64,000 bases of DNA from NCBI GenBank assembly GCA_022829145.1, contig CM040761.1, positions 312,768-376,767 on the forward strand. The letters run 5' to 3'. Every line of letters begins with the position of its first letter. Position 1 is the stretch's first letter. The stretch is from Albula goreensis. Its lineage: Eukaryota > Chordata > Actinopteri > Albuliformes > Albulidae. This document shows positions 13,637 to 63,866 of the stretch, one piece after another. Both the position numbers and the translations under genes were made by a program. Below the pieces are notes generated by a model. The model made no database searches. It saw only the letters and a list, made by a program, of their open reading frames with translations, and was not told the origin of the DNA.

Positions 13637-13672
<36 letters not shown>

Positions 13673-14205: not shown

Positions 14206-14330
14206 ACACAAATACACATGTCTATCAGTCAAGATTATATAAGCACAACTGCCCAAGCTGTATCCCGGGTATGAAGCATGTGTAATCTGCTTATTGTCAA
14301 AGTTGTATATGGATCTGCAATTTTTTTTCT

Positions 14331-16035: not shown

Positions 16036-16158
16036 TGATGTTTGTGTTGGGGGCCATAATAGCAGGTGCCAATAGAGGGTGCTGTAGGTTTTTTGGGTGC
16101 TTGGTTATGCCCCAGTGCGGTTGAAGAAGCGGTTGCTGGCCACTGATTGTCAAATGCT

Positions 16159-19662: not shown

Positions 19663-19669
19663 GTATATA

Positions 19670-35771: not shown

Positions 35772-38606
35772 GGCTGCGTTCCAATCCGAAAAAATGCTTG
35801 CTTCTTCGTGCTCACTTCCCTTCAATCAAGGGGGGAATCCCCAAAAAGTCCCGTATGCAAGATGGCAAGATGCCACCGTGAGGGCGATTCCAATCCAGAT
35901 TTGTTGAGGGAAGGGCGAATTTTCATTTGCTCAAGCCCTCGGTTTCACTCCCTCCAACGGAGCCAACAAAAATCATCCCTCCAAGCGTTGATATTGCCTA
36001 GAATGCACGGCAATGCTTGCTCGCTTGCCCACGTGTTAAACTTTATTTGAATATTATGCTCTTGCTACCAAAGAACAAGCAAATTTAAAAACGTTTACCA
36101 AGTTCAAAGACCTCTGTTGCCGATCGATTATACAATCCATTCGCTAAAATGCTATGTTGTTGGTGGTGGTCGTTATTTAAATCTTACAGATTCAAAGGAA
36201 ATGCCCAACACTCAATAGCCGCTTATCAAGTTCATTGGTAGTCCAAAAAAATATACGTTTTGACCATGAAGTTTTAATCATAAGCTCTCATAACCTGGTG
36301 GAGGCATAGCTGCCGTAGCCATGCATTTTGTTAAGAATAACCTAAATTTTCTGAATCTTTAAATGTAACAGTTATGCTACCTTTAGCTTCAATCATTCGC
36401 ACAGCATGAAATAGAATCTTCTGTTGAGCACGAACTGTTTTTAAATCGCCATTTAAACATACTGGTATAATTGCCTATGTACACTGCTCAAAAAAATAAA
36501 GGGAACACTGAAATAACACATCCTAGATCTGAATGAATGAAATATTGTTATTAAATACTTTGTTCTTTACATAGTTGAATGTGCTGACAACAAAATCACA
36601 CAAAAATTATCAATGTAAATCTAATTTATTAACCCATGGAGGTCTGGATTTGGAGTCACACTCAAAATTGAAGTGGAAAAACACACTACAGGCTGATCCA
36701 ACTTTGATGTAATGCCCTTAAAACAAGTCAAAATGAGGCTCAGTAGTATGTGTGGCCTCCACGTGCCTGTATGACCTCCCTACAATGCCTGGGCATGCTC
36801 CTGATGAGGTGGTGGATGGTCTCCTGAGGGATCTCCTCCCAGACCTGGACTAAAGCATCCACCAACTCCTGGACAGTCTGTGGTGCAAAGTGGCGTTGGT
36901 GGATGGAACGAGACATGATGTCCCAGATGTGCTCAATTGGATTCAGGTCTGGGGAATGGGTGGGCCAGTCCATAGCATCAATGCCTTCGTCTTGCAGGAA
37001 GTGCTGACACACTGCAGCCACATAAGGTCTAGCATTTTCTTGCATTAGGAGGAACCCAGGGCCAACCGCACCAGCATATGGTCTCACAAGGGGTCTGAGG
37101 ATCTCATCTCTGTACCTAATGGCAGTCAGGCTACCTCTGGCGAGCACATGGAGGGCAGTGCGGCCCCCCAAAGAAATGCCACCCCACACCATTACTGACC
37201 CACTGCCAAACCGGTCATGCTGGAGGATGTTGCAGGCAGCAGAACGTTCTCCACGGCGTCTCCAGACTCTGTCACGTCTGTCACATGTGCTCAGTGTGAG
37301 CCTGCTTTCATCTGTGAAGAGCACAGGGCGCCAGTGGCGAATTTGCCAATATTAGTGTTCTCTGGCAAATGCCAAACATCCTGCACGGTGTTGGGCTGTA
37401 AGCATAACCCCCACCTGTGGATTTCGGGCCCTCATACCACCCTCATGGAGTCTGTTTCTGACTGTTTGAGCAGACACATGCACATTTCTGGCCTGCTGGG
37501 GTCATTTTGCAGGGCTCTGGCAGTGTTCCTCCTGTTCCTCCTTGCACAAAGACGGAGGTAGCGGTCCTGCTGCTGGGTTGTTGCCCTCCTACGGCCTCCT
37601 CCACGTCTCCTGATGTACTGGCCTGTCTCCTGGTAGCACCTCCATGCTCTGGACACTACGCTGACAGACACAGCAATCCTTCTTGCCACAGCTCGTATTG
37701 ATGTGCCATCCTGAATGAGCTGCACTACCTGGGCCACTTGTGTGGGTTGTAGACTTCGTCTCATGCTACCACTAGAGTGAAAGCACTGCTAACATTAAAA
37801 AGTGACCACAACATCAGCCAGAAAGCATAAGAACTGAGAAGTGGCCTGTGGTCACCACCTTCAGAACCACTCCTTTATTGGGGGTGTCTTGCTAATTGCC
37901 TATAATTTCCAACTGTTGTCTATTCCATTTGCACAACAGCATGTGAAATTGATTGTCAATCAGTGTTGCTTCCTAAGTGGACAGTTTGATTTTACAGAAG
38001 TGTGATTGACTTGGAGTTACATTGTGTTGTTTAAGTGTTCCCTTTATTTTTTTGAGCAGTGTATATCGTAGCATAATTCCGGGTTTATTCGTCTGATATT
38101 GATATTTATTTTTTGTTCATCATTTTACCTGTCTCTACACATATGTACTTTTAAACCCTGTTACACCTTACACTTATTTATCATTACTTGGTTACTGTTG
38201 CAGTTAGATACTGATCTGTTTTACCATATTTTATCGTTACCGATTTTATTAATTATCTGTACTTGTCTATGGGAATCACTTCGGGATTCACCCTGCTCAA
38301 AAGGTGTTACACAAATAATTATAGTAACTATTGTTATGATTGTGATAATTATTCAATATGATTATTAAATTGTGCATACAGATAAGTGGTTTCACATTGG
38401 AAAAGCTTGGCAACTTTATTGAAAATAACATCACATCTATTAATAGTAAATAAAAATGGAAAATATAAGGATTTTGGTATGGGGAATATGCTAGATATGT
38501 AGGCATATCTAGCTAACATGCATCTTCACTGCTACATCACTGGAGGGCTCACTCGATTTGAGGGAAGAAGTGAAGGGAGGATTTTATTTCGGATTGGAAC
38601 GCAGCC
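35772..38606. mobile_element. GGCTGCGTTCCAAT-family element, split by Tc1 copy 2, GAA target duplication
   Basis: Ends GGCTGCGTTCCAATCCGAAA inverted against TTTCGGATTGGAACGCAGCC, with GAA at 35769-35771 and 38607-38609. Without the Tc1 copy it is about 1.25 kb. The interior differs from the 16-19 kb copies. No transposase seen. Confidence 0.8.
36482..38061 (-). mobile_element. Tc1-type transposon copy 2 (1,580 bp)
   Basis: Same family and length as the copy at 19670, opposite strand, TA at 36480-36481 and 38062-38063. The N-terminal frame is 37432-37764 (shifted after QNDP) and the DDE frame is 36740-37324, with [18 protein letters not shown] and SPDLNPIEHIWD. A frameshift separates them, so it is a pseudogene. 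Confidence 0.93.
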
Positions 38607-46900: not shown

Positions 46901-49900
46901 CTGTATACATTTTTTTACCTGAAGTTGTAGTTTGGATTATTTTGGCTTTAGATATACACTGTGAAATTTAAGGTTAAAATAAAAATTTCATTCAGACCAA
47001 TTGTTGCTCTCACTTTGAATAACGTTTGAAGACGTGGCTTGGTGCAGGGGATGGGGAAGAGTATAACATAAAGGGATACAAGGTGCTTAGAAAAGATAGA
47101 ACCAATAGAAGAGGAGGGGGCATAGCTCTGTATGTAAAGGATTATCTTAACATCCAGGAAATTCCAGGAATGGAGCCCCTTGGTGTTAGTGAGGACATAT
47201 GGATTAAAATACTGGGGGAAAATGAAAAGGGTCTGAATGTCGGAGTATGTTATAGGCCACCAGCCTCTGACAGCAGTGTCAACAGGATGATCTTTGATAA
47301 CATTACACATGGCATGTCAGGAGGGTGAGACAATAGTAATGGGTGACTTCAATTACCCCTCAATTAATTGGGAAACTGTGTCTGGTCAGGGTAAATGTGA
47401 GGAAGAGTTTCTGGATGTTGTAAATGATTGTTTTCTGAGACAGTCTGTTACTCAACCTACAAGAGAGAACACAATTCTAGACCTGGTTCTGTGTAATAAT
47501 CCTGATCGAATCTGCAGTACCGAGGTAGGGGAGCCACTTGGAACAAGTGACCATAGTGCAGTTACATTTGAAGTTTTTTGGCGAGTTAAGACTACATCCT
47601 TCAATGCTAGAATTTTCAACTTCAGACGAGCTGACTTGATTAAAATGCGGATTATACAAGAAATATAAACTGGGTAGCTCTTCTAGATGGTAGAACTGTA
47701 ACAGAAATGTGGAACATATTTAAAACGATTATTCTGGATGCCCAGCGTAAATTCATTCCGCAAATGCGAAAAGGGAAGCTGAAAAATAGGCATCCGCAGT
47801 GGATGAATAAGGCGTTACAAGATAGTTTGAAACATAAAAGGGAACTATTTAGAAAATTCAAATTAGACAGCTCAGAGACAAACAAGATAGAATACAGCAA
47901 AATGCATGCTGAAGTTAAGAAAGGAATAAGGGAAGCTAAAAGGGGTTTGGAAAGACAGATTGCGCTAGATGCAAAAACAACCCTAAACGCTTTTTCCAAT
48001 ACTACAATCGAAAAAAGGATACTTAAGGTTGAGATATGAGGTTTAAAAAACAAGGATGGACTTATGGTTTATGATAACAAGGCTATTGCTGATACCCTAA
48101 ACACCTACTTTGTGGAGAGTTTCACGAGGAGAATTCAGTCCTCAGAGTCTTATGGAGGAAATTGATTTAAATGACACACAAGTTCTGGATAAACTTTGAA
48201 AACTTAAAACAAATAAGGCAGCAGGTCCTGGTGGAATATTTCCAAGAGTCCTCAGGGAACTAGCGGAAGAGGTCTACAAACCGCTGACAGTTATTTTTAA
48301 GCAATCCCTTAAAACTGGAGAAATACCAGATGACTGGAAGCTAGGCAGTGCAGTACCTATCTACAAGAAAGGAGACCGGACTGATCCAGGAAATTATAGG
48401 CCTGTCAGCTTAACTTGTATCACATGTAAATTACTGGAATCCATCCTTTGGACAATTTGGAATTATTCTTAGAACAAAATGGTATCTTAAACGATAGCCA
48501 GCATGGTTTTTGCAGAGGAAGGTCATGCTTAACAAACCTCCTGGAGTTTTTTGAGGAAGCTACGGCATGTTTAGATGCAAACCAAGCTTATGACATTATC
48601 TATTTAGACTTCCAAAAGGCATTCGACAAAGTTCCGCATGATAAGCTCATACTGAAAATGAAATCTGCAGGAATATCAGGAGCTATCACTGAGTGGGTTT
48701 GAAGTTGGCTGACTGGTAGAAAGCAGAGTGTAACTGTTGGAGGAATTGTTTCAGAACAGGGTCCTGTAAGAAGTGGAGTCCCACAGGGATCGGTGTTGGG
48801 GCCTTTGCTTTTCCTTATTTACATAAATTATCTTGATGCAGGGGTTAGTAGTAAAATAGTAAAATTTGCCGCTGACACAAAACTGGGCGGTCTAGCCAAC
48901 AGTATAGAATCAACTAAGGTAATACAAGAAGACCTAAACAGCATCCATATGTGGGCAGATACCTGGCAGATGACATTTAACTTAACTAAATGTAAAGTCT
49001 TGCATGTGGGAAACAAGAACCTGAGACGAGACTACTTCATGGGAGGAAGTAAACTAGATTGTGCTCAATTTGAAAAAGACTTGGGAGTAATACACTGCTC
49101 AAAAAAATAAAGGGAACACTGAAATAACACATCCTAGATCTGAATGAATGAAATGTTGTTATTAAATACTTTGTTCTTTACATAGTTGAATGTGCTGACA
49201 ACAAAATCACACAAAAATTATCAATGTAAATCAAATTCACTAACCCATGGAGGTCTGGATTTGGAGTCACACTCAAAATTAAAGAGGAAAAACACACTAC
49301 AGGCTGATCCAACTTTGATGTAATGTCCTTAAAACAAGTCAAAATGAGGCTCAGTAGTATGTGTGGCCTCCACGTGCCTGTATGACCTCCCTACAATGCC
49401 TGGGCATGCTCCTGATGAGGTGGTGGATGGTCTCCTGAGGGATCTCCTCACAGACCTGGACTAAAGCATCCACCAACTCCTGGACAGTCTGTGGTGCAAC
49501 GTGGCATTGGTGGATGGAACGAGACATGATGTCCCAGATTCAGGTCTGGGGAACGGGTGGGCCAGTCCATAGCATCAGTGCCTTCGTCTTGCAGGAACTG
49601 CTGACACACTGCAGCCACATAAGGTCTAGCATTTTCTTGCATTAGGAGGAACCTAGGGCCATCCGCACCAGCATATGGTCTCACAAGGGGTCTGTCACAT
49701 GTGCTCAGTGTGAACCTGCTTTCATCTGTGAAGAGCACAGGGCGCCAGTGGCGAATTTGCCAATCTTAGTGTTCTCTGGCAAATGCCAAACGTCCTGCAC
49801 GGTGTTGGGCTGTAAGCACAACCCCCACCTGTGGACATCAGGCCCTCATACCACCCTCATGGAGTCTGTTTCTGATCGTTTGAGCAGACACATGCACATT

Positions 49901-52900
49901 TGTGGCCTGCTGGAGGTCATTTTGCAGGGTTCTGGCAGTGCTCCTCCTGTTCCTCCTTGCACAAAAGCGGAGGTAGCGGTCCTGCTGCTGGGTTGTTGCC
50001 CTCCTACGGCCTCCTCCACGTCTCCCGATGTACTGGCCTGTCTCCTGGTAGCACCTCCATGCTCTGGACACTACGCTGACAGACACAGCAAACCTTTTTG
50101 CCACAGCTCGCATTGATGTGCCATCCTGGATGAGCTGCACTACCTGAGCCACTTGTGTGGGTTGTAGACTTCGTCTCATGCTACCACGAGAGTGAAAGCA
50201 CTGCTAACATTCAAAAGTGACCAAAACATCAGCCAGAAAGCATAGGAACTGAGAAGTGGCCTGTGGTCACCACCTGCAGAACCACTCCTTTATTGGGGGT
50301 GTCTTGCTAATTGCCTATAATTTCCAACTGTTGTCTATTCCATTTGCACAACAGCATGTGAAATTGATTGTCAATCAGTGTTGCTTCCTAAGTGGACAGT
50401 TTGATTTTACAGAAGTGTGATTGACTTGGAGTTACATTGTGTTGTTTAAGTGTTCCCTTTATTTTTTTGAGCAGTGTAGTTGACCAAAGCCTAACAGGAT
50501 CTAGGCAGTGTGCTGTAGCAGTAAAAAAGGCTAACAGGATTGTAGGATACATAGCCAAATGTATTGATTATAAATCTAAGGAGGTTATATTAAAATTATA
50601 CAATGCTTTAGTTAGACCACACTTGGAATACTGTGTGCAGTTCTGGGCACCGCACTATAAGAAAGATATCGAGGCTCTTGAAAAAGTACAAAGGAGGGCA
50701 ACTAAACTAGTTCCTGGCAAGAAACCTATTTAGACTCAGCATGAGGAGACTAAGGGGTGATTTAGTAGAGGTTATTAAATTTATAAAGGGACTCAACAAG
50801 GTTAACTACGATACATTTTTTAAGGTGAGTTCAGTCTGTAGGACAAGGGGACATAAATGGAAACTAGTTAAGAGTAAGTTTCGCACTGATGTAAGGAAGT
50901 ATTGTTTCACACAAAGAGTTATCAATACATGGAATGGGTTGCCAGGTCATGTAGTTGAGGCAGAGACCCTTGCTGTGTTCAAGTCCAGACTTGATGCAGT
51001 TTTGGATACTCTTTAAATAATGTAATGGCAAGCTTTGTTGGGCCGAATGGCCTGTCCTTGTCATTATATGTTCTTATGTTCTTATGTATGTTTTAAAACT
51101 GGGTTTTCAAAGCACCATCAAGTATTTGAATGCATGCAAGTGCTTCATACGTCACTGCTTTCCTGTTTGATGATCAAATGCACAAAACGGGTAACAACAA
51201 GCATTATGATTTGATTAAAATTTTTAAAACTTTTTTTTTCATATTTAACATCCTTTCTCTGCTAAAATGATGCACTGAGCCCCTGCCTGGAGCAGAAATC
51301 CAAACACCGCAGCCCAGTCCTAGCTCATCTATCTTCCAGTCCTGCCCACCCCGCCCGTCCCACCCTCCCTTTGCCAAGAACTAGACCCTACTTCCATATT
51401 TACTGTTATACTGCAAATATGATTATTCTACCTAAATTGTTACAATCACTGTTATTGTAATTGTTCCTGTTATTATTTCAATTATCATTTGAGTGAGTAA
51501 GATTCATGTCAGCCATCTCCATTCTTCTGTTTACCCATTGCATTCCCTGTGCCAGCCAGAAGCAGATGGGCTCCTCCTCTGAGCCAGGTTCTGCTTAAGG
51601 TTTCCTCTTGTTGTCAGGGAGTTTTTCTTTGCCACTGTTGCCTTGGCTTGCTCCGAGGGGGTTTCAGGCCAGGGATCAATTGTAAAGCTGCTTTGTGACA
51701 ACTTGTTGTAAAAAGCGTGAGTCAAATAAAATTGAATTTAATTAAAATTAGATGCTCCAAGCAAGTAAATACAAACATGGTGTTGAAATGGCAGAGCAAG
51801 GAACCCCTACCATCCTCATGAGGTAATCACTGAAAATTGGGGCCTCCCATTGGCTCACAAGGCATTTGTCGGGGGCCTGAGGTTTGGTTTTCCGGCCTTG
51901 CCATTACTGGATTTGAGGTCCAGCCTGAGGTCTGCATTGGCAAGGTAACAATCGACTTGGCCTCGCTAGGGATGGCAGGGGTGTAGGCCGGTTAATTGCT
52001 AGTTCATCACTGTAGCAACCCCTCCTGGGTAGCTGAGCACCTGCAGTTACACAAACTAAATGTACGCTGACTGTGTAATCCTCTGATGACATTGGTAGTG
52101 TGAGATTGTGACACCTGCAGTAGGAAATTTGCCTGCAAGTTACCTTTAAAAACAAGAGATGAGAGTTTCTTAGTCATTGCTTTTTGGTTACACCTGGAAG
52201 AGGACGTTTTCTCCCATGTCCATGTGGAAAAGGATTTACAGCCAGTTAGTGCCACTGTTTGCCCCTTCACTCAGGGGTGGCTCAGTCACAGAGTAGCTCT
52301 GTTTGCCCACTCACTCAGGGGTGGCTCAGTCAGAGAGTAGCTCTGTTTTCCTCCTCACTGAGGGGTGGTTCAGTCACAGAGTAGCCCTGTTTTTCTCCTC
52401 ACTCATGGGAGGCTCAGTTATTGTATAGCTCTGTTTGCCTTCTCGCTCAAGGGTGGCTCAGTGCTGATCCTAGGGCAGTAGGCTGCAGTGTCACCTGGGC
52501 CTTTACTGATATTTGTAGTTATCTGTTAATAGAAGCTACTGAGACTAAAAGCACCTGTACAGTAGGCTTGCCACGGTAGTCGTGTCACCGGAGTTGCACG
52601 GTGTTCGGGCATACACCGATTACGTTACATTGGCCATCGCCCCCACCGTCGTTTTGCTTTTTTTTAATATAAATAAAACCCATTAAGTTCATGTTTAGTT
52701 GTGTTTTTCATTAAAAAATAATAATGAACCAGCCTTCTAAGCATTCATTTTGTTCAAAGTAAGAGGAAGATCTAAAGATCTAACGTTAAAGATCAAAGTA
52801 AGCTCTCTACAGATATTCAGCGTCACTGACACATATTTTTTTGTAAAATGTCTGGTGTAATCGATAATACCAGTGTTGTCACAAGTTTATGAACTGGTGG

Positions 52901-55900
52901 GAAAATTTCCTCACCGTGGCATCCCTACTATACAGCAGTTAAAAGGTGGGTAACTGCTTTTTCCCTTCTATTCCTCCTGGATGCATGTCATCACAGCCAC
53001 ATAAGAATTGCTTTTTGGTCATTTGGTAAAGCCTAAGCCATCCTCCAGTTAAATCCCTTGAATTCTTATTTGCGCTGCTTTATTTTGGAAGTCAAAATGA
53101 CTTTTAGTCTAGGTTTAGACTTTTAGAGTCTTACTGTGTGCAAACATAATAGAGTGTGCTTAACTGGAAAAGCGGTCCAACAGGGTCGACATAGAGGTCT
53201 TACCATGCACAGTCTCTGCCAGCTGTGTTCACAGAGTACTGAAACACTCTCAGGCATTCCACTTGGTGCTGCACCACCTCCAGCACCCCTGTTCTCTGTG
53301 GCTATGCTCAAATGTATGTGTTTAAGCTTAGTGCCAGGCTAATCCATCTTGTCTGCTTGTCTCCATGTTCTATCTCTTCGAACATCCCCTCTGTTAGTGT
53401 TCACATTCTACCTCTTCATTTATTTAAAAACATCTGCAACCTCCGAAAAACTGTAATCACTATCGCCTGGCGCCATAGTGTAATCTGCGAAGCATGGCAG
53501 AATGGTTGTGCTTTTTCGTCACACTGGGTGATAGCACATGCACCCTGCCTTATTGAGTGTCCACAGCTTTCTTGACAATGGGCTGCTGATTCGACCACTT
53601 TTAATCAAGATTGTAAAATAACTATACATATCAATTGAATAAATTTGATGTGAATGCCCAGTGATATAAATGCATCCAACTATTGAATATAAGCAGAATA
53701 TATATGTATCATTTTTAAGCTTTCTAAGTTTGAAGTCACAGTTCCACTGTTGTCAACCCTAATTTGTTTTTACTGTAGTATGTCTGTACCTGAGTTACTT
53801 TTTGCTGAGGTCCTGTGTGTGATAGAAAATAATGAAAAAATCCCATAATGCTTTTTCCTGTGTCTGGTTGCATTCACTTGAGTCTGGACTTGGCTTTTGG
53901 TGTTACAGGGTGTAACATTCTTTGGGGAATCCTTCAATCTATAATCCTTGACTAAAACCAGGAAGGATCAGTGAAGTGCCAGTTTGTCTTGGAGAGATAC
54001 CTAAACATTTTGGCAACTAAGCCCTGTCCTTCACTGCATTACAGTTGGCAATCTTCACAAGAAATGAATCTATGGGCTGCTTATGAAAATAAGAGCTTGC
54101 ACCAGCTGAATCTTTCAGTGAGATAGCCAGTAGGCTCTCAAGACAATGCAGTTAGTGCATGTTGCTTAGAGCCTTAGTGATTCCACCTATAAAAAAATTT
54201 CAAAAATGGAATATATTTAGTTTGCTGGAAAAGCCAACACCATTGCTGGAACCCTAATTCAGTGAAATGAAAGGGGATCAAAAATTAACATGAGATTAGC
54301 AGCAGTTGAACATTTTAAAGACCTCTTCATGGTACTCATAAGATATTGAATGTTCGATTTCATACTGGATTAGATGTTACAGCAGATTTGTGTTGCACAG
54401 GTTTTGCAGACGGCATCGGTTAAAAACCGGAGAGAACGTTCCGAGTGTCCCGAGTGACCTGCTGCTGATGTCAGAGCTGGTTCTCCCCCGTTTCATCGTC
54501 TGTATTATTCAGTACCTGAGAGATGGGTACACTGAACCAGGTGAGAATCAGCGCTGTGCGTTTACTGAACCAGGTGAGAAACAGAGCTGTGCGTTTACTG
54601 AACCAGATGAGAAACAGAGCTGTGAGTTCACTGGACCAGGTGAGAAGCAGCGCTGTGTTCACTGAACCAGGTGAGAAACAGTACTGTGTTCACTGAACCA
54701 GGTGAGAAACAGCACTGTGTTCACTGGACCAGGTGAGAAACAGTACTGTGTTCACTGAACCAGGTGAGAAACAGCACTGTGTTCACTGGACCAGGTGAGA
54801 AACAGTACTGTGTTCACTGAACCAGGTGAGAAACAGCACTGTGTTCACTGGACCAGGTGAGAAACAGCGCTGTGTTCACTGGACCAGGTGAGAAACAGCG
54901 CTGTGTTCACTGGACCAGGTGAGAAACAGCACTGTGTTCACTGGACCAGGTGAGAAACAGCGCTGTGTTCACTGGACCAGGTGAGAAACAGCGCTGTGTT
55001 CACTGAACCAGGTGAGAAACAGCGCTGTGTTCACTGGACCAGGTGAGAAACAGTACTGTGTTCACTGCACCAGGTGAGAAACAGCGCTGTGTTCACTGGA
55101 CCAGGTGAGAAACAGTACTGTGTTCACTGAACCAGGTGAGAAACAGCGCTGTGTTCACTGGACCAGGTGAGAAACAGCACTGTGTTCACTGAACCAGGTG
55201 AGAAACAGCACTGTGTTCACTGAACCAGGTGAGAAACAGCGCTGTGTTCACTGGACCAGGTGAGAAACAGTACTGTGTTCACTGCACCAGGTGAGAAACA
55301 GCGCTGTGTTCACTGGACCAGGTGAGAAACAGTACTGTGTTCACTGAACCAGGTGAGAAACAGCGCTGTGTTCACTGGACCAGGTGAGAAACAGTACTGT
55401 GTTCACTGGACCAGGTGAGAAACAGCACTGTGTTCACTGGACCAGGTGAGAAACAGCACTGTGTTCACTGGACCAGGTGAGAAACAGCACTGTGTTCACT
55501 GGACCAGGAGAAAAACAGCGCTGTGTTCACTGGACCAGGTGAGAAACAGAGCTGTGTCCACTGGACCAGGAGAGAAACAGCGCTGTGTTCACTGGACCAG
55601 GAGAGAATCTGAGAATGCTGCAGAAATCTGTTGCAGCCATTCTTAATCCTCAGTGTTGAATGCAGCTCAGTGAATCCAAAGCATTTGTAATATTTTCTGA
55701 TAAATCATTCAGATTTCATTATCAAAACATTATGCCGCACACTGTAACATTCCTGTCCCTCTCTGCTTGTTGATAACTTTTTTTAATGCAAGGATATAGT
55801 TTGACCATAGTTACCATCTCTGCTACCATCCTCAGATGGTCCTACAGACACACAGGCATATTAGTGTTTTCCCTCACACATAAACGGACACATATCAATG

Positions 55901-56071: not shown

Positions 56072-59000
56072 CTCAGTGAGTTTCCCCTCTCTTGCAGACT
56101 CTTCCTCAGACCGGGATTTGCAGAAGGTCCTACAGCAGCTAGTGCCTCACATCTCCTTCCTGGAAGAGCTAACAAAGATGGGTGGAGCTATGCGAACCGT
56201 CCTGACAAAGATCTTAACCAATCAGCAGATCTTTAGAGACTTAAGCATGGGTATGTCCTCACAGCTGTATTTATGTGTTTATCATCCAGCAAACTTTATA
56301 AAAGGCTTTTTGGTTGATGGATGCTTCACTTTGTTACCATGTTTACATAGTGTGGCAAAGTGGCAGGGGTGGCCACTGTGCCGGGTGGTGAGTGGAAGGT
56401 AAAACACAACAAAAAGTTCAACTGAAAGGGCCGAAGGCCATTTATTAACCCCTTTTTGGGGAAAAGAAACCACCAACAAACAGGCTCAACACAAAACAGG
56501 GCAAAACACAAAAACCAGCACAGCCATCCAACACAAAAAGTCTAGCCGTTCAAAAAAGGTCCCTTCAGCCTCTTAGGCTGTGCTTAAATAGAAGGCCTAA
56601 TTGGAGGCAAGTGCTCACAGCTGAGTCGATTAGGAATCACTCTCAGGTGAGCCTGCCTGTTTGTGAGGCCTCTGCTGTTTCAGCTCCAGTTCCTCTTCAG
56701 GCTGAGGGAGGGAACCAGGAGACTGACAGCAGTACAGTGGGAGGAGCCGAGGCGCTCGCTCCTCCCTCCACCTCTCCCGGCGCCACATTCCCCCCCCCTA
56801 GCTTCAGACCGTAGGGAGGAGGCGGAAATACCTTCGCGCCGAGAGAGAGCATTTTGGGCCCATCAGGCCCCACCCCCAGGGTCAAAGACCAGGCAGGCCA
56901 TGAAGCCTGGCAGGCCCCCAGGGGAGGCCCAGAACCCCAGCCTGGCACAGTTTCCGGGCAACAGAGGGCAGGCTGGACCCTCTGGGACAGCAGGCGGAAA
57001 TCTGGCCAAGGGCTCGGGAAGGCCTGCCGGGTCAGCAGGCGGCGTCGAGCAGGCCACGTGCTCGGGAAGGCCTGCCGGGTCGGCAGGCGGCGTCGAGCAG
57101 GCCACGTGCTCGGGAAGGCCTGCCGGGTCGGCAGGCGGCGTCGAGCAGGCCACGTGCTCGGGAAGGCCTGCCGGGTCAGCAGGCGGCGTCGAGCAGGCCA
57201 CGTCCTCGGGAAGGCCTGCCGGGTCGGCAGGCGGCATCGAGCAGGCTACGTGCACAGGAAGGCCTGCCGGGTCGGCAGGCGGCATCGAGCAGGCCACGTG
57301 CTCGGGAAGGCCTGCCGGGTCGGCAGGCGGCGTCGAGCAGGACACGTGCTCGGGAAGGCCTGCCGGGTCGGCAGGCGGCGTCGAGCAGGCCGCGTGCTCG
57401 GGAAGGCCTGCCGGGTCGGCAGGCGGCGTCGAGCAGGCCGCGTGCTCGGGAAGGCCTGCCGGGTCAGCAGGCGGCGTCGAGCAGGCCGCGGGCTCGGGAA
57501 GGCCTGCCAGGTCAGCAGGCGGCGTCGAGCAGGCCGCGGGCTCGGGAAGGCCTGCCGGGTCAGCAGGCGGCGTCGAGCAGGCCGCGGGCTCGGGAAGGCC
57601 TGCCGGGTCAGCAGGCGGCGTCGAGCAGGCCGCGGGCTCGGGAAGGCCTGCCGGGTCAGCAGGCGGCGTCGAGCAGGCCGCGGGCTCGGGAAGGCCTGCC
57701 GGGTCAGCAGGCGGCATCGAGCAGGCCGCGGGCTCGGGAAGGCCCGCCGGGTCAGCAGGCGGCGGAGAGCAGGCCACGCACTCGAGCAGGCCACGCACTC
57801 GAGCAGGCCCACCGGGTCAGCAGGCGGCGGAGAGCAGGCCACGTCCTCGGGCAGGCCCACCGGGTCAGCAGGCGGCGGAGAGCAGGCCACGTCCTCGGGC
57901 AGGCCCGCCGGGTCATCAGGCGGCGGAGAGCAGGCCACGTCCTCGGGAAGGCCTGCTGGGTCATCAGGCGGCATCGAGCAGGCCACGTCCTCGGGAAGGC
58001 CTGCTGGGTCGGCAGGCGGCATCGAGCAGGCCACGTGCTCGGGAAGGCCTGCTGGGTCGGCAGGCGGCGTCGAGCAGGCCACGTGCTCGGGAAGGCCTGC
58101 TGGGTCGGCAGGCGGCATCGAGCAGGCCACGTGCTCGGGAAGGCCTGCTGGGTCGGCAGGCGGCATCGAGCAGGCCACGTGCTCGGGAAGGCCTGCTGGG
58201 TCGGCAGGCGGCATCGAGCAGGCCACGTGCTCGGGAAGGCCTGCTGGGTCGGCAGGCGGCATCGAGCTGGCCACGTGCTCGGGAAGGCCTGCTGGGTCGG
58301 CAGGCGGCATCGAGCTGGCCACGTGCTCGGGAAGGCCTGCTGGGTCGGCAGGCGGCATCGAGCTGGCCACGTGCTCGGGAAGGCCTGCTGGGTCAGCAGG
58401 TGAAGAGCAGGCCCCTCTCTCAAGCAGGCCCTCTGGGTCAGCAGGCAGTGGAGAGCAGGCCCGGCTCTCTGGAAGGCTCGCTAGGCCAGGGGGCGGCAGA
58501 GAGCAGTCTGGGCTCTCTGGAAGACCTGCCGGGTCAGCAGGTGGCAGAGAGCAGGCCCCGCCCTCACGCAGGCCCACCAGGTCAGCAGGCGGCGGAGAGT
58601 AGGTCTGGGTCTCAGGCAGGCCCACGGGGTTGGCGGGCGGTGGAGAGCAGACCAAGCTCTCTGGCCCCTGTGGTGACTGGGCAGGGACTGGTGATGGCTG
58701 GACGGCTGGGGTCAGTGGGTACACCTGGAAGGGCGTGAGTGCCCTTCTCTCCTCCTCCGTCCTACGGAGAAGGAAGTTGTGTATAGCCACGTTCTCAGGG
58801 TCCAGGCACTCACGCCAGTGATGGTCTTCGGCCCGGCCACAGCTCCCACAAAAGCCCGACCCCGGCTCTGGACACACCGACCAATGGTGGGGATCCCCGC
58901 ACCAGTCGCACCACGGGAAGGACCACTCCAGCCCCCCCCCAGGATCCACCTTGGGCCCCGCCGAAGGTCCAGGCTCCCCTCCTGGGGCAGACCAGTCCAT

Positions 59001-59229
59001 AGCTTCAAAAGGGTCCCTCCTGTCCATCAATGGGGCCGTGGGTAAGGCCTCCCCAGCTGCCAGACAAAGCAGCTCTGCCAGCAAGTCTGTTGGGCAGGCC
59101 TCCACATCCTCCCAGGTCACTCGCCTCTCCCAGCAGGGCCAGGAGCTGGGGCCCAGCAGTCTCTGGTGCTCCACCTGGCTCTTCCGCTTGGCCTTCTTCC
59201 TTCCCCGGGATGGCATTGTGCTTTTTTGT

Positions 59230-59263
<34 letters not shown>

Positions 59264-62200
59264 GAAGGGGAAAAAGGGAAAACCCCCAAAACCAAAACTG
59301 GGGGAAGGGAGAAAAAAAAAACCCGAACAAAAACTGCCTTCCACTCACGCACTGGGGCCTGGTGCCCGCATTCTCCACCAATGTGGCAAAGTGGCAGGGG
59401 TGGCCACTGTGCCGGGTGGTGAGTGGAAGGTAAAACACAACAAAAAGTTCAACTGAAAGGGCCGAAGGCCATTTATTAACCCCTTTTTGGGGAAAAGAAA
59501 CCACCAACAAACAGGCTCAACACAAAACAGGGCAAAACACAAAAACCAGCACAGCCATCCAACACAAAAAGTCTAGCCGTTCAAAAAAGGTCCCTTCAGC
59601 CTCTTAGGCTGTGCTTAAATAGAAGGCCTAATTGGAGGCAAGTGCTCACAGCTGAGTCGATTAGGAATCACTCTCAGGTGAGCCTGCCTGTTTGTGAGGC
59701 CTCTGCTGTTTCAGCTCCAGTTCCTCTTCAGGCTGAGGGAGGGAACCAGGAGACTGACAGCAGTACAGTGGGAGGAGCCGAGGCGCTCGCTCCTCCCTCC
59801 ACCTCTCCCGGCGCCACAATAGTCTCCATCAAACTGCTGTGGCATATTCATAAATTTGATTATGGGGATGCTTGTCTAGGCCACTGCAAATGAGCGCTGT
59901 TGTTTGACTCTGGCTCATGATTGGGTAATTAGGTTACTGCTTAGGTCATATTTGTTATTGAGGACCCATCATGGCTTTATGTTTCTGTAAGTCAAGCTGT
60001 CTAGTTTTCATAATGTTAATGAAGAACTGGGTGAAAAAAAGCTATTTTTGCATAAAATATGTGTTTCATGTTTCCATGTAGGACAAGAAGAGAATGTGTA
60101 TGCTCAGAAGAACTATGAGAAGTACCTTTCTGCATTGAAGGGCTCTGGTCTGGTGCCTGCAGAGGAGAAGGCTGTGGGAGGGGCAGGGCCAGGGGCGGCG
60201 GACCTGGCTTCCTCAGGGGCGGGGCCAGGGGCTGTCAGCTTACTGGGTGAGCACTGCTGGGAGAGAGCCATCCGCTGAGTATGGCAGGCACAATGGTTAC
60301 TCCATACATTTATGTGCATTTATGATGATCTATCTTAAACAAATCTACACCACAGTGGTCATGTTATTAAATGGGTGATAAAAACCGGGACTGGAGTTAT
60401 TTGCTGAAGTTGGAATACATAAGATAGGTTGGTTTTGAAAACACACTGTAATGGAATGCAAAGTTGTCCCTCTTTTTTATTAGCACTTTTCCCCCTTTTT
60501 TCCCCCTTTTCCCAGCCGAAGTAACTTGCCCTGTGTGAGCCTGCTGGAGCTGGATAGGGTTTCTTCTTTTAAACCAAGTGAAAGTTGGCAAATAGAGGAA
60601 GAGCTGAATGAGACAAAGCTGCTCCTTCCAGCCCGTTTCTCATTTTGTCTTTGGTGTGAATCTGATATTACATGATCAATGACAAAATTGATTTTAAAAC
60701 TGATTCTGATAGTATTTTTCTGTCATTTTCCATGCTCCTGTAACTGCTATTCTGATTGGTTTCTGGTTTTGTAACAGCTGTTCTGATTGTTTTGTGGTTC
60801 GCTCTAGGAGCAGCGGCTGCAGCCAATCCTGATGAGTCCAGTAAAGAGGTAGGTGTGTGGGCTGAGACATGCAGACTGCTAGGCCTGCACAATATGAGGA
60901 AAATCTGTGATGTGCAATAACATTGTTCAATATTGCGATTACGATATGACTTGCAAAACAAATATTGAAGTGTGCATATTAGCTAACAGTTCCTATTTCT
61001 TTCTTTTTTAATAGGTACACCACTAACATAGACACCAGAAATTGAATAGTCTATGCCCACTACATAAAGAAATAAATTATTTCAGACATGAAATATTATT
61101 GAACAAATTGCACATGGACACCCACCCAATTAAACAGAATATTTATATTCAATTTAAATAAGACCTTATAACTATAAGAAATTCAAGTTTAATTTCCCCT
61201 GCTCCCTTTAAAATATTTTCTTCCAAATTCAACAGAAACGTCTTTTGAAATAAAAAAAGGGGGGAAACAACTGAATAAATGTAAAATTAAACATGGCAAT
61301 TTAAAATAACTGTAATGTCTCCCATTACAATCATCAAGGCCCATATATCCAGGGCTCCATCTGATAGGTCAAATGTTTGCATGCTGAGTGTGAATTAGGG
61401 ATGGGCGATATGGTCTAAAAACAATAAAAACTGTATTCAGTATTTCAATATTTTATCTAAAACACTGAGTTGAAGTCAAAACCATGTATAATGTTAAATA
61501 ACAGTCTTTATTTGTTTAAAGACGACAACTGCGCACAGCATATCTTTTAATAATTGCTGTAAAGTTCATGTAAATCGTTCAAACAATATAAATACACCAC
61601 ACGCACAGCATATCTCTTATAACGGTAATGGTATCGTTACCAGAACTAGCCGTATGCTTTTTGACGGATTCGTAGTTCTGCACTGGGTGGTGTGATTTGA
61701 GGTGGTGCACTAAAGTTGTGGTACTGCTACCTTTTGTTGCTGTATTTTGGCATAATTTACACAAGACTGTACTCTGCGTGTCTTCCCTCCTGAATCCAAT
61801 ACACCTGCCACGATAACGGCCTGGGTACAGTGGAATGAGTGTCAGAGTTTCAGAGAGAGAGAGAGAGCACAACAGGCTTCTGCCTGTTAAATGCTGACGA
61901 CTTTCAAAAGAAACATGCAAATTATTACACTGCGAATCCTTATTTGATATTACAATATGGCAACTACTTGTATCTTATAAAGAATTATCAAGTATGTTGA
62001 ATATATTCGCTTTGTCACCCAGTCCTAGTGTGAATGCATGTATATGAAATGATTTTTCTCATTCATCGTGTTTCAGGCAGTGTTTATCGCGTATGTTCAT
62101 ATGGCGATGAAAATATGACTTTTTGTTCAGCACTACAGACTACTGACTGCAGTTTATTGTACTCTTGTGTGTATAGAACCTAGATATGCAGACTACTGAC

Positions 62201-63866
62201 TGCAGTATGTCCATCTGTCTCTGACTCCTTGCAGAGTTTTAAAAAATGATTCCCTTTCATCTCCTTGTTTTCACACAGTTCGTGGTTATGAGGGTTGCAA
62301 GGATTTGGTCCTCTGGCAAATCAACGTTAACATGATTTTACTGGAAAAATGTGCTGGGGAAATAGATTGCATTGCTATGGTTAAAACGTGTTGGTGATAT
62401 TGATAGCATTGTTATAGCTGTAATAAAGCATCTCTTTCACTGTCCCGTTGTGTTTACATTCGCAGGAGGAACAGGATGGAGGCCTAAATGTTGGAAAGAG
62501 AAAGAGAGTGAAGCTAAGCAGTAGTACCAAAGGTAGTAAACAAGCTTTTACACATAACTTACTGCTGAGGAATTTTTGAGCTGTCTTAAAGCATTTAGAT
62601 TTGAGTTAAAAAGAGAATGAGTTAAGAGTACAGACAATCAGCGTTTATTCATGGTATTTACATGTATATAAGTTTAACATTGTACAGAAACAGCAGATTT
62701 TGAGTTGAGTGACATTTTTAGCTGTGCAAAATTAAGTTAACAAATGACAGTTGCTCAGGTGTTTCATTTGGAATTTAATATTGAGCATAAAATGCAGTGA
62801 CTGTTTAGTCTGGGTTTTAGCCTATTTTTCATCTGTGGGGACTGCATTTGGAGTCATAGCTAATGCACCGTCATGAAGGTCTGAGAGCTACCTACAGTGG
62901 GAAAACAACTGATGTGTATCCTGGGAGTACAGAACAATTCATTAAGTATAATGGCACAGCAAATGTGTGTATTAAGCACAGTTTGGAAAGTCTTGAATAA
63001 GACAGAAAGCACTGGGGGAGTAAGGAATTCCAATCAGGTCAGCCAAGGGAAACAACCCCAGATGATGATGATAAATGGATCCTAAGAGCTTTGAAGAAAA
63101 ACCCTAAAGCAATGGTCACTGACATCACATGTTGCTCTCTGTTACAGAGCGTTCAGCTCCATTTGCTGCTCTCTGTTACAGAGCGTTCAGCTCCGTGCGC
63201 TGCTCTCTGTTACAGAGCGTTCAGCTCCGTGCGCTGCTCTCTGTTACAGAGCGTTCCGCTCTGTGTGCTGCTCTTTGTTACAGAGTGTTCAGCTTGGTGG
63301 GACTGCTCTCTGTTACAGAGTGTTCCGCTCCATGTGCTGCTCTCTGTTACAGAGCGTTCAGCTTGGTGGGACTGCTCTCTGTTACAGAGTGTTCAGCTCC
63401 GTGCACTGCTCTCTGTTACAGAGCGTTCAGTTCTGTGTACTGCTCTCTGTTAAAGAGCGTTCAGCTCCATGTGTTGCTCTCTGTTACAGAGCATTCAGCC
63501 ACACTGAACTCTGTGCTCACCTCAATCCAGCCCTCATCACCCGCAAAGGAGGATCATCAGGGATAATAATGTAAAATCAACTCCTCAGTTCTCCCCACTT
63601 GTGCACTTCTACCACCACTCTGAAGCACTAGTTTTACTGAAGTATAGAGAGTTATTGCAGTACTGCAGAAAGGGAGACCCAGTTCATGTGCTTGACCCAC
63701 TGTCTTACCTAATGGATTTCTGCTCTGTTTTCCAGATCCATCCATAATGGATACTCTGAAACACAAATGCTTTTTAGAGGAATTGCTTTTTTGGACAATA
63801 AAGTATGAGTTTCCACAGAAGATGGTTACCTTTTTGTTGAACATGCTGCCAGATCAAGACTATAAG
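43496..63866 (+). CDS. ubr3: UBR3, E3 ubiquitin ligase of the UBR family, first seven coding exons
   Basis: Large RING-type E3 with an N-terminal UBR box; mammalian UBR3 does not bind classical N-degrons. Exons: 43496-43929, 54401-54540, 56098-56250, 60082-60246, 60808-60848, 62466-62532 and 63736-63866, together 1,131 nt and 377 codons in one frame. The UBR box (about 81-152) has Cys83, 96, 99, 104, 108, 111, His117, His120, Cys133 and Cys135, completed by FCRRHR in exon 2. Then follow [35 protein letters not shown], the low-complexity exon 4, a basic KRKRVKLS segment and [20 protein letters not shown]. All align collinearly with human UBR3. ATG ATG opens the frame; either Met could start. 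The RING and most of the protein lie beyond the window. Confidence 0.96.
43930..44979 (+). other. UBR3 intron 1, left part, nothing recognised
   Basis: No exon or clear element between the first exon and the LINE fragment. Confidence 0.4.
44980..45395 (-). mobile_element. LINE ORF2 C-terminal fragment
   Basis: The minus strand encodes [20 protein letters not shown] and, in another frame, [19 protein letters not shown]. This is the usual C-terminal block of non-LTR retrotransposon ORF2 (rRNA-like KKAF-YAAP-WNSL motif). 5' truncated and frameshifted. Confidence 0.75.
45850..46620 (-). mobile_element. Tc1/mariner relic in UBR3 intron 1
   Basis: Contains the complement of the DDE-region phrase around ACACCCCCACCACCATGTTT and GGCGACTGACTTGGCCAGTT, both typical of Tc1-like elements in fishes. 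Heavily decayed; ends not defined. Confidence 0.55.
47020..51085 (+). mobile_element. CR1-like LINE, 5' truncated and decayed, split by a Tc1 copy
   Basis: Endonuclease part at 47030-47650: [36 protein letters not shown] and [10 protein letters not shown]. Reverse transcriptase part at 48190-49085: [61 protein letters not shown] and FAADTK, where the catalytic FADD is changed to FAAD. C-terminal part at 50480-51015: [20 protein letters not shown] and [11 protein letters not shown]. It ends with repeats of TGTTCTTA (51063-51085), as CR1-type elements do. Several stops and frameshifts. The Tc1 copy at 49093-50476 sits in the reverse transcriptase C-terminal part. Confidence 0.9.
49093..50476 (-). 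mobile_element. Tc1-type transposon copy 3, internally deleted (1,384 bp), inside the LINE
   Basis: Same ends and family as the copies at 19670 and 36482, TA at 49091-49092 and 50477-50478. The N-terminal frame (49838-50179) is intact to the same stop as copy 1. The DDE frame (49448-49738) lacks about 50 residues between TLSTCDR and PLVRPYAGA plus the NPIE region, so it is inactive. Confidence 0.93.
51500..51745 (+). repeat. 3' tail of a LINE-type interspersed fish repeat
   Basis: GGTTTCCTCTTGTTGTCAGG, GAGTTTTTCTTTGCCACTGT and TGCCTTGGCTTGCTC, then AAGCTGCTTTGTGACAAC and an ATAAAATTGAATTTAAT end. This order is common at the end of L2-type fish repeats. Confidence 0.6.
52262..52465 (+). repeat. 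About 45-bp tandem repeat, four to five units
   Basis: Units CACTCAGGGGTGGCTCAGTC followed by AGAGTAGCTCTGTTTGCC, with increasing divergence to the right. Confidence 0.85.
52563..52927. mobile_element. 365-bp hAT MITE in UBR3 intron 1
   Basis: Ends TAGGCTTGCCACGGTAG and, reversed, TAGGGATGCCACGGTGAG. Flanks CTGTACAG (52555-52562) and CTATACAG (52928-52935) form an 8-bp target duplication with one mismatch. Confidence 0.85.
52936..54400 (+). other. UBR3 intron 1, right part, nothing recognised
   Basis: No element or exon recognised. The open frames are short and without family features. Confidence 0.4.
54401..54540 (+). CDS. ubr3: UBR3 coding exon 2
   Basis: Acceptor tgttgcacag; [20 protein letters not shown] to YLRDGYTEP plus one base; donor CCAG|GTGAGAATC. 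The donor is the first unit of the minisatellite that follows. Confidence 0.94.
54527..55612 (+). repeat. 31-33-bp minisatellite made of the UBR3 exon 2 / intron 2 junction
   Basis: About 35 units. The first, ACACTGAACCAG|GTGAGAATC, is the real exon end and donor. The first three units are 33 bp and keep an open frame ([11 protein letters not shown] type); later ones are 31 bp, such as GTGAGAAACAGCGCTGTGTT then CACTGGACCAG. About 31 units keep CCAG|GTGAG, a consensus 5' splice site. About four have GATGAG or GGAGAG instead. Confidence 0.95.
55920..56071 (+). repeat. CA-rich microsatellite before UBR3 exon 3
   Basis: Imperfect CACACA tract ending with (CA)n at 56042-56070, 27 bp upstream of the exon 3 boundary, so it overlaps the expected branch-point region. 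Confidence 0.85.
56098..56250 (+). CDS. ubr3: UBR3 coding exon 3
   Basis: Acceptor ctctcttgcag; [20 protein letters not shown] to IFRDLSM; donor GTATGT. A (CA)n run ends about 27 bp before the exon. Confidence 0.95.
56351..56787 (-). repeat. 3' LTR of the element
   Basis: On minus: TATA-like TATTTAAG at 56583-56590 and AATAAA at 56441-56446, giving a plausible U3-R-U5 order. Confidence 0.9.
56788..56800 (-). promoter_or_regulatory. Polypurine tract
   Basis: Minus strand TAGGGGGGGGGAA ends exactly at the 3' LTR. Confidence 0.8.
57013..58400 (-). repeat. 48-bp tandem array, about 29 units
   Basis: Unit on +: CTCGGGAAGGCCTGCCGGGT, CGGCAGGCGGCGTCGAGCAG, GCCACGTG. As 48 is a multiple of three and the unit lacks stops in several frames, both strands have long open frames here; the + strand ones are taken as by-products. 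More degenerate units extend to about 58660. Confidence 0.93.
57246..59216 (-). CDS. Gag-like protein of the LTR element, zinc knuckles plus 16-residue repeats
   Basis: From ATG at 59216 ([12 protein letters not shown]) the frame is open for 656 residues. Order: basic N terminus; a helical part with [20 protein letters not shown]; two Cys/His knuckles, [13 protein letters not shown] and [15 protein letters not shown]; a Pro-rich part; then many copies of [15 protein letters not shown]. Near 57770-57810 a short out-of-register duplication shifts the reading, and the rest is translated in another frame ([16 protein letters not shown]). The original register continues in a separate frame to 56863. 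ATG is chosen because upstream in-frame sequence is LTR and a 32-nt poly(A) leader (59231-59262). Knuckles and position suggest RNA packaging, by inference. No similarity to a named family is claimed. Confidence 0.7.
   Translation of the reverse strand: MPSRGRKKAKRKSQVEHQRLLGPSSWPCWERRVTWEDVEACPTDLLAELLCLAAGEALPTAPLMDRRDPFEAMDWSAPGGEPGPSAGPKVDPGGGLEWSFPWCDWCGDPHHWSVCPEPGSGFCGSCGRAEDHHWRECLDPENVAIHNFLLRRTEEERRALTPFQVYPLTPAVQPSPVPAQSPQGPESLVCSPPPANPVGLPETQTYSPPPADLVGLREGGACSLPPADPAGLPESPDCSLPPPGLASLPESRACSPLPADPEGLLERGACSSPADPAGLPEHVASSMPPADPAGLPEHVASSMPPADPAGLPEHVASSMPPADPAGLPEHVACSMPPADPAGLPEHVACSMPPADPAGLPEHVACSMPPADPAGLPEHVACSTPPADPAGLPEHVACSMPPADPAGLPEDVACSMPPDDPAGLPEDVACSPPPDDPAGLPEDVACSPPPADPVGLPEDVACSPPPADPVGLLECVACSSAWPALRRLLTRRAFPSPRPARCRLLTRQAFPSPRPARRRLLTRQAFPSPRPARRRLLTRQAFPSPRPARRRLLTRQAFPSPRPARRRLLTWQAFPSPRPARRRLLTRQAFPSTRPARRRLPTRQAFPSTRPARRRLPTRQAFPSTCPARRRLPTRQAFPSTWPARCRLPTRQAFLCT
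59363..59380 (-). promoter_or_regulatory. Primer-binding site, tRNA-Ala type
   Basis: Minus strand TGGTGGAGAATGCGGGCA, one base from the 5' LTR. It is the complement of a vertebrate tRNA-Ala(AGC)-type 3' end (...GCCCGCATTCTCCA plus CCA), recalled from memory. Confidence 0.8.
59382..59818 (-). repeat. 5' LTR of the element
   Basis: Same length and sequence as the copy at 56351. Its AATAAA is at 59472-59477 on minus. Confidence 0.9.
59823..60081 (+). other. UBR3 intron 3 remainder
   Basis: No feature recognised between the LTR element and exon 4. Confidence 0.4.
60082..60246 (+). CDS. ubr3: UBR3 coding exon 4
   Basis: Acceptor tccatgtag; [20 protein letters not shown], then a Gly/Ala-rich stretch ([19 protein letters not shown]) that differs from human; donor GTGAGC. 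Confidence 0.92.
60808..60848 (+). CDS. ubr3: UBR3 41-nt coding exon 5
   Basis: Acceptor ttcgctctag; [14 protein letters not shown]; donor GTAGGT. Fits phase on both sides and the human VDSSDEEDQDG region. Confidence 0.85.
60880..61394. repeat. hAT-type interspersed repeat fragment in UBR3 intron 5
   Basis: Starts CTAGGCCTGCACAATATGAG, with TGCAATAACATTG and ATTGCGATTACGATATG, words typical of fish hAT MITEs. Right end unclear. Confidence 0.45.
61395..62140 (-). mobile_element. hAT transposon relic with BED zinc finger
   Basis: Starts TTAGGGATGGGCGATATGGT. Minus-strand frame 61579-61920 includes [20 protein letters not shown] and [10 protein letters not shown], the Cys-x2-Cys...His-x4-His layout of a BED finger. 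The catalytic part is absent. Paralogous to 30363-30960. Confidence 0.8.
62466..62532 (+). CDS. ubr3: UBR3 coding exon 6
   Basis: Acceptor acattcgcag; [20 protein letters not shown], a basic NLS-like stretch; donor GTAGTA. Confidence 0.93.
62533..63126 (+). other. UBR3 intron 6, left part, nothing recognised
   Basis: AT-rich; no exon or element recognised. Confidence 0.4.
63127..63500 (+). repeat. 34-bp minisatellite with acceptor-like units, before UBR3 exon 7
   Basis: About 11 units of TGCTCTCTGTTACAG then AGCGTTCAGCTCCGTG. Each has a pyrimidine tract plus CAG, as in a 3' splice site. The true acceptor (GCTCTGTTTTCCAG, 63722-63735) is about 235 bp further on and resembles the unit. Confidence 0.93.
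63736..63866 (+). CDS. ubr3: UBR3 coding exon 7, with GC donor
   Basis: Acceptor ctgttttccag; [20 protein letters not shown] to LPDQDYK. The sequence after Lys is GCATGT. Human continues VAFTKTF, whereas reading through here gives ACFENFS and a stop, so splicing with a GC donor at 63867 is the simplest reading. Confidence 0.85.

What the first reader, a model, noticed from the sequence alone, without database searches (positions are those of the whole stretch)
56347..59822. Young LTR element with Gag-like gene only and tRNA-Ala-type primer site
LTRs of the same 437-bp length with no difference seen, an exact 4-bp duplication, polypurine tract and primer site show a recent, properly retrotransposed insertion. 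It has no polymerase. The Gag-like frame with two unusual Cys/His knuckles suggests a family that keeps its own RNA-binding protein and borrows enzymes. The presumed primer, tRNA-Ala, is uncommon among vertebrate LTR elements as far as I know.
Basis: partly seen in the sequence, partly recalled or inferred. Interest (0 to 1): 0.78.

Follow-up and report, generated by a model that had tools for sequence, protein, structure and literature searches.

The report
Polymerase-less LTR element keeping a protein
This is a young copy of a mobile element that has no copying enzymes of its own but still carries a small protein gene kept in working order by evolution, which raises the question why a borrower of enzymes would keep a protein.

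Summary
At 56347-59822 lies a 3,468-bp LTR element read on the minus strand: two identical 437-bp LTRs, ATAG duplication, 18-nt primer site, polypurine tract, no polymerase. The host genome (932 Mb, unnamed; teleost by inference) holds relatives: nine units, this one included, share the order LTR, primer site, ORF, 48-bp array, polypurine tract, LTR; 7 of 10 LTR pairs have no substitution. The primer is tRNA-Ala(AGC): two host genes with the exact 3' end were read. The 209-aa ORF part is selected: against nine relatives (few independent) dN/dS is 0.30-0.40 in its frame and 0.88-1.49 in the others. 'Gag-like' is only partly supported: no Pfam, NCBIfam or PDB match of use, no capsid domain found, second Cys/His knuckle altered in the sister subfamily. 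The array is frameshifted in this copy. No enzyme gene lies in the nine units. A different LTR family shares the primer site and has an integrase match about 2 kb downstream at 3 of 10 places: a candidate helper only. One LTR copy (L061) has a SCAN-domain ORF 3.2 kb upstream, unresolved. Verdict: new variant of a known kind (Gag-only non-autonomous LTR elements such as BHIKHARI and TR-GAG).

The parts
56347..56350 (.). target-site duplication ATAG, left
59819..59822 (.). target-site duplication ATAG, right
59382..59818 (-). 5' LTR (437 bp, TGTGGC..GCCACA); TATTTAA at 59621-59615 and AATAAA at 59477-59472
56351..56787 (-). 3' LTR, identical to the 5' LTR
59363..59380 (-). primer binding site, 18 nt complementary to the 3' end of tRNA-Ala(AGC) plus CCA
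59416..59430 (-). 5' arm of a possible U5-leader stem that encloses the primer site
   Evidence: z -2.73; no support from covariation
59337..59352 (-). 3' arm of the possible U5-leader stem
59217..59381 (-). leader with a long A-rich tract (T run 59222-59262 on the + strand) just before the ORF
58590..59216 (-). selected first part of the ORF (209 aa, P0001)
58872..58910 (-). Cys/His knuckle 1, CDWCGDPHHWSVC; Cys and His kept in both subfamilies
58806..58850 (-). Cys/His knuckle 2, CGSCGRAEDHHWREC; altered in the sister subfamily
57004..58593 (-). array of 48-bp (16-codon) repeats
57770..57803 (-). 17-bp tandem duplication that shifts the frame of the array
57246..59216 (-). whole open frame of this copy including the stop (656 aa; the end part is in the shifted frame)
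56788..57003 (-). conserved 3' tail; polypurine tract at 56788-56799

Best explanation
A recently inserted copy of a non-autonomous LTR retrotransposon family. Inferred cycle: RNA is made from the LTR promoter; the ORF yields a small basic protein with a zinc-knuckle-like motif and a long Pro-rich repeat tail; this protein binds the RNA that encodes it and brings it into particles supplied by another LTR element; reverse transcription starts from tRNA-Ala(AGC) at the 18-nt site; the helper's integrase inserts the DNA with a 4-bp duplication. Shown: structure, copies, recent movement, primer match to host tRNA genes, purifying selection on the first 209 codons. Inferred: RNA binding, particle formation, helper identity, preference of the protein for its own RNA.
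For: Identical LTRs, duplication, primer site and polypurine tract. Same order in nine units including the window's; in 10 LTR pairs 0 substitutions in 7, 1 in two, 19 in one, with gap columns in 6 of the 10. A 4-bp duplication in 7 of those 10 units, two of them inside AT runs; the other three lie in composite arrays. The tRNA-Ala 3' end at 7 places in the genome; 2 of 2 read are tRNA-Ala(AGC) by ARAGORN, one with a T-stem mismatch. dN/dS in the ORF frame 0.30-0.40 for nine relatives of the window ORF, other frames 0.88-1.49. The interiors of the nine units are taken up by leader, ORF, array and tail. 0 of 44 T-spacer primer sites has a listed integrase match downstream within 10 kb (compared by eye).
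Against: No family match for the protein. Structure prediction uninformative (mean pLDDT 40). The frame of the array is not conserved and its units show no clear selection. No helper shown; the integrase search scored 150 of 581 candidates, and no reverse-transcriptase search was answered. The nine dN/dS comparisons are not independent; closer pairs give 0.41-0.49, several not significant. L061 has array, tail and LTR of this family and a SCAN-domain ORF 3.2 kb upstream on the same strand, which could belong to a longer relative. No expression data.
Confidence: 0.65

Rival explanations
1. The short copies are internal-deletion derivatives of an autonomous element whose gag begins with this ORF; the ORF is selected in that element, which is rare, missed by the search or absent from this assembly.
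For: Selection on an ORF is simplest to explain in an element that moves itself. The integrase search was incomplete (150 of 581 candidates scored). 4 of 44 T-spacer primer sites have no listed ORF match in the same orientation. L061 has a SCAN-domain ORF (PF02023, E 3.9e-11) 3.2 kb upstream of array, tail and LTR, same strand, with no LTR of this family seen between; whether it is one element is unresolved.
Against: The nine units of the window's subfamily hold no room for pol, and the one sister-subfamily unit read with both LTRs (L075) is about 3.8 kb from LTR start to LTR end. 40 of 44 T-spacer sites have a listed ORF match beside them and none a listed integrase. Of 9 long open frames tested at L059, L060, L061 and L062, none has an enzyme domain.
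Confidence: 0.25
2. The ORF is a captured host gene fragment or a protein with another role (for example acting on host defence), not a nucleocapsid-like protein. This can be true together with non-autonomous movement.
For: No match to any Gag or zinc-knuckle family; knuckle spacing is not the retroviral one; knuckle 2 is altered in the sister subfamily; the three-sequence profile finds only unrelated PDB rows at E 1.1 and 1.3.
Against: Place right after the primer site in an LTR element; basic start; Cys and His of knuckle 1 kept in both subfamilies. The best of six PDB rows for the knuckle stretch alone is a nucleocapsid protein, but at E 0.48, not significant; the other five are HDAC6.
Confidence: 0.2
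3. The frame is open only because the DNA is GC-rich.
For: Some frame is open in 467 of 5000 shuffles; long frames on both strands of the array.
Against: Frame-specific dN/dS of 0.30-0.40 and gaps in multiples of three in the five relatives. This argument does not cover the array.
Confidence: 0.02

Closest known systems
BHIKHARI-1 and -2 of zebrafish (PMC10996621; passages and section 5 read)
   Same: LTR family of a fish, recently active, one long ORF, no pol, presumed to be moved by a helper
   Different: Bik-1 encodes a 617-aa Gag with coiled coil, capsid domain and glycine-rich patch; here no capsid domain was found, but there are Cys/His knuckles and a 48-bp array
TR-GAG elements of plants (PMC8704663, passages read; Chaparro 2015 seen only in its reference list)
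   Same: two LTRs and a single ORF; one Arabidopsis TR-GAG (562-aa GAG) is reported to transpose without its own enzymes
   Different: TR-GAG is defined by a recognised GAG domain and described in plants; no GAG domain is recognised here
Gmr9/GmOgre soybean retrotransposons with minisatellites (PMC3305785; title and start of abstract in a listing)
   Same: tandem repeats in the 3' part of a retrotransposon
   Different: a retrotransposon of the soybean genome; here the array is 1,586 of 3,468 bp
TRIM / LARD elements (recalled)
   Same: LTRs, primer site and polypurine tract without enzymes
   Different: those lack a selected protein gene (recalled)

Membership tests
LTR retrotransposon | paired LTRs with TG..CA ends, target duplication, primer site, polypurine tract | tested here: met
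non-autonomous LTR element | no pol in the element and in its close copies | tested here: met
   interior is leader, ORF, array and tail in the window and 8 other units; a complete search of the genome for a pol-bearing relative was not possible
TR-GAG | single ORF with a recognised GAG domain | tested here: not met
   no Pfam or NCBIfam match at E 10 for the window protein; 1 of 3 aligned members has an unrelated Pfam row at E 3.2
BHIKHARI | Gag with a capsid domain, lokiretrovirus kinship | tested here: inconclusive
   no capsid domain seen by profile; single-sequence model at mean pLDDT 40; no pol for a tree
retroviral or Gypsy nucleocapsid | C-x2-C-x4-H-x4-C knuckle | tested here: not met
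   0 strict matches; 2 with other spacing
Ty3/Gypsy, ERV or Copia superfamily | reverse transcriptase phylogeny | not testable with these tools
   the element has no reverse transcriptase

The most novel reading that the evidence does not exclude
A vertebrate LTR parasite that has lost every enzyme and the capsid, yet is kept by selection for one RNA-binding protein that favours its own RNA: a nucleocapsid-only retroelement that loads itself into another family's particles, perhaps one that shares its tRNA-Ala primer.
Probability: 0.35. Interest if true: 0.75.

Novelty: new variant of a known kind. Interest (0 to 1): 0.5.

Why it matters
Selection on a protein in an element without enzymes means that the protein should help mainly the RNA that encodes it. 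That makes the question of cis preference in borrowed retrotransposition directly testable with a small protein and a compact element, outside the known capsid-bearing cases. The exact 18-nt tRNA-Ala site also links it to control by 3' tRNA fragments; the same 18 letters are on record in a fish small-RNA study.

Tried and rejected
Tried without result: Pfam, NCBIfam and PDB searches of the protein; viral contigs with the protein (3 stretches matched a pattern, none confirmed) and with the primer site (1 stretch, not followed); bacterial and archaeal contigs with the primer site (26 stretches, taken as chance and not read); structure of the 209-aa part (mean pLDDT 40); covariation in the U5-leader stem and U5 hairpin (94.7% of 150 cells paired, 92.2% in the stem, against a shuffled mean of 94.9% overall; no compensatory change, so sequence conservation may explain it). 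Rejected: chance ORF; great age; another tRNA (17 of 18 for human Ala-AGC; no non-Ala tRNA of the 23 typed exceeds 12 of 18). Frames broken in near-identical copies were not taken as biology: 37 of 50 indels in 11 copies are single bases in runs of 3 or more, while such runs hold 22% of positions, which looks like assembly error; real indels are not excluded. The near-identical copies of that call have only 0-5 substitutions each and cannot test selection; L051a, L052b and L055 show nonsynonymous changes only (1, 3 and 3). Paper searches (listings only, except for the papers named) showed no report of this family; no library of repeat consensus sequences was on hand.
Full report
OBSERVATION. 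The element runs from 56351 to 59818 on the minus strand, inside a probable intron of a host gene on the plus strand (splice-like borders near 56099-56250 and 60082, read by eye). Its LTRs are identical over 437 bp, the target duplication is ATAG, the primer site follows the 5' LTR after one base, and the polypurine tract AGGGGGGGGGAA precedes the 3' LTR. The LTR has TATTTAA at position 198 and AATAAA at 342.

INTERIOR. After a leader with a long A-rich tract comes an ORF from ATG 59216. Its first 209 codons are mostly not repetitive; the rest is a 48-bp array. The array is open in several frames on both strands, so its openness says nothing. A 17-bp duplication at 57770-57803 moves the array into another frame in this copy. 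Codon-position counts in the array units give no clear sign of selection. Array length ranges from 1,561 to 3,441 bp in ten units.

COPIES. The LTR has 40 scored matches in the host genome, of 1,372 first-look candidates. I read all 40 with flanks: 10 regions and 18 regions of 10 kb (one place is in both), the window's own two apart. Nine units, the window's included, have the order LTR, leader, ORF, array, tail, LTR; one more unit lacks the leader. Of the 18 places, 14 show one LTR and none of our leader, ORF or tail within about 4.8 kb on either side (two of these have runs of N), 2 (L061, L069) show array and tail plus LTR, and 2 (L070, L075) show the ORF. LTR pairs have 0 substitutions in 7 of 10 units, 1 in two and 19 in L056; 6 of the 10 pairs have gap columns. 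In L075 the two LTRs differ by 0 substitutions and 3 gap columns, and in L070 a partial pair by 10 of 205. L075 has LTRs about 88% and an ORF about 76% identical to the window's (78% in the alignment). So a second subfamily also looks recently active, though L075 is a tandem and its identical LTRs could come from a recent tandem duplication. A worn partial LTR lies in the window itself at 10339-10678.

PRIMER. The 18-nt site is the exact complement of the 3' end of tRNA-Ala(AGC) plus CCA. The tRNA 3' end occurs at 7 places in the host genome, six in one cluster; reversed control 0. The two that I read are tRNA-Ala(AGC) by ARAGORN; the one from the cluster has a mismatch in its T stem. The site is unchanged in 7 of the 10 units and shifted by one base in an eighth (L052a); L056 differs at 2 of 18 and L052b has no leader. 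A grass-carp small RNA named cid-miRn-131 is the same 18 letters (PMC4698583, Table 1 passage); it looks like a 3' tRNA fragment. PMC7515703 (passages) describes 18-nt 3' fragments that block the primer site of LTR elements. The site may sit within a 15-pair U5-leader stem (MFE -49.1, z -2.73, 2 of 200 shuffles as good); in six sequences 92.2% of the stem's cells pair, without compensatory change, and shuffles do as well, so the alignment gives no independent support.

THE ORF IS SELECTED. Against the window copy, in the ORF frame, dN/dS is 0.38 (L056), 0.30 (L070), 0.39 and 0.38 (L075a, b) and 0.38, 0.38, 0.40, 0.32, 0.37 (L076-L080), with Fisher p from 0.0013 to 8e-8. In the other two frames it is 0.88 to 1.49. 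These nine are not independent: L075a, L075b and L076-L080 belong to one sister subfamily, and L056 and L070 are close to each other. Pairs among the relatives give 0.41 to 0.49: significant for L056-L075b, L070-L075b, L076-L079 and weakly L076-L077, not for L056-L070, L076-L078 and L078-L080; for L076-L079 one other frame also gives 0.50 (p 0.08); L075a and L075b have no substitution in the codons compared. I chose L076-L080 because one search lists them as long matches without stops, so they are biased toward undamaged copies; L056, L070 and L075 were reached through their LTRs. In L076-L080 all gaps against the window copy are multiples of three; L070 and L075 also have gaps that are not. 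L056 has one internal stop. The protein search reports 152 matches, 150 of 346 candidates scored; by my hand tally of the listed rows 33 span about 190 residues or more and 19 of these have no stop, at 55 to 100% identity.

IS IT A GAG? There is no match in Pfam or NCBIfam, nor in the PDB for the whole piece, at E 10. For the knuckle stretch alone six PDB rows appear, the best a nucleocapsid protein at E 0.48 and five of HDAC6; a profile of three relatives finds instead granzyme K and an EFR3 construct at E 1.1 and 1.3. The motif spacing is not the retroviral one. The Cys and His of knuckle 1 are kept in L056, L075b and L076-L080; in L070 the first half of it is out of frame. Knuckle 2 reads FCCCA(Q/H)SEDHHW in the sister subfamily and has lost C-x2-C. 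The structure model is of too low confidence to use. I therefore call it nucleocapsid-like at most.

HELPER OR LONGER RELATIVE. 54 places have CACA, one base and the exact primer site; reversed control 0. By eye, 40 of the 44 with T as the spacer have a listed ORF match beside them and none has a listed integrase match within 10 kb downstream; of the 10 with G as the spacer none has a listed ORF match and 3 (on C3, C8, C14) have an integrase match 2,006 to 2,017 bp downstream on the same strand (the lists of 131 and 142 are capped). That distance would suit the Copia gene order (recalled), which was not tested. In the 571 bases read at the C8 place the LTR is not similar to ours: the one strong match is the primer site itself, the rest are short. 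So a family with an integrase uses the same primer, but a helper role is a guess. Of nine long open frames at L059, L060, L061 and L062, two are olfactory receptors, one has a SCAN domain (L061, E 3.9e-11) and six have no Pfam match; open frames in L069, L070 and L075 were not searched there. In L061 the SCAN ORF lies 3.2 kb upstream of array, tail and LTR on the same strand, with no leader, ORF or LTR of our family seen between. SCAN domains are recalled to be related to Gag capsids, so L061 may be part of a longer relative or simply a neighbour; this is unresolved.

KNOWN KINDS. Gag-only LTR elements are known: BHIKHARI in zebrafish (PMC10996621, passages and section 5) and TR-GAG in plants (PMC8704663, passages). 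Ours works like them in having one selected ORF and no enzymes, but fails the test of a recognised GAG domain. It is a new variant of a known kind.

Noticed in passing
10339-10678 (-): Worn, truncated LTR of the same lineage just after a BTB-kelch exon (open frame 9069-10436).
   Followed up: partly
19665-21255, 36476-38066, 49090-50478: Three copies, pieces 96-98% alike, of a DDE transposon (PF13358, Tc1/mariner-like by recall); a 203-aa open frame in two of them.
   Followed up: partly
15571-16101 (-): Another DDE_3 transposase fragment.
   Followed up: no
54499-55700: Minisatellite of 31-bp units, upstream of the element.
   Followed up: no
63098-63533; 52239-52458; 13117-14217: Further tandem arrays of 34-bp, 44-bp and about 53-bp units.
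   Followed up: no
G000 C3:28109915, C8:38294755, C14:21682832: A different LTR family with the same tRNA-Ala primer site and an integrase match about 2 kb downstream.
   Followed up: partly
L061:1-981 (+): SCAN-domain open frame 3.2 kb upstream of array, tail and LTR of this family; one element or two is unresolved.
   Followed up: partly
G000 C14:33353478-33371607: Cluster of six places with the tRNA-Ala 3' end; one read and confirmed, with a T-stem mismatch.
   Followed up: partly
L048-L055: Near-identical copies differ mostly by single-base indels in homopolymers, which suggests unpolished repeats in the assembly.
   Followed up: partly
PMC4698583 Table 1: Grass-carp 'cid-miRn-131' is identical to the last 18 nt of tRNA-Ala with CCA, so it is probably a tRNA fragment and not a microRNA.
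   Followed up: no
59222-59262: Long A-rich tract in the sense strand between leader and ATG; origin and role unexplained.
   Followed up: no
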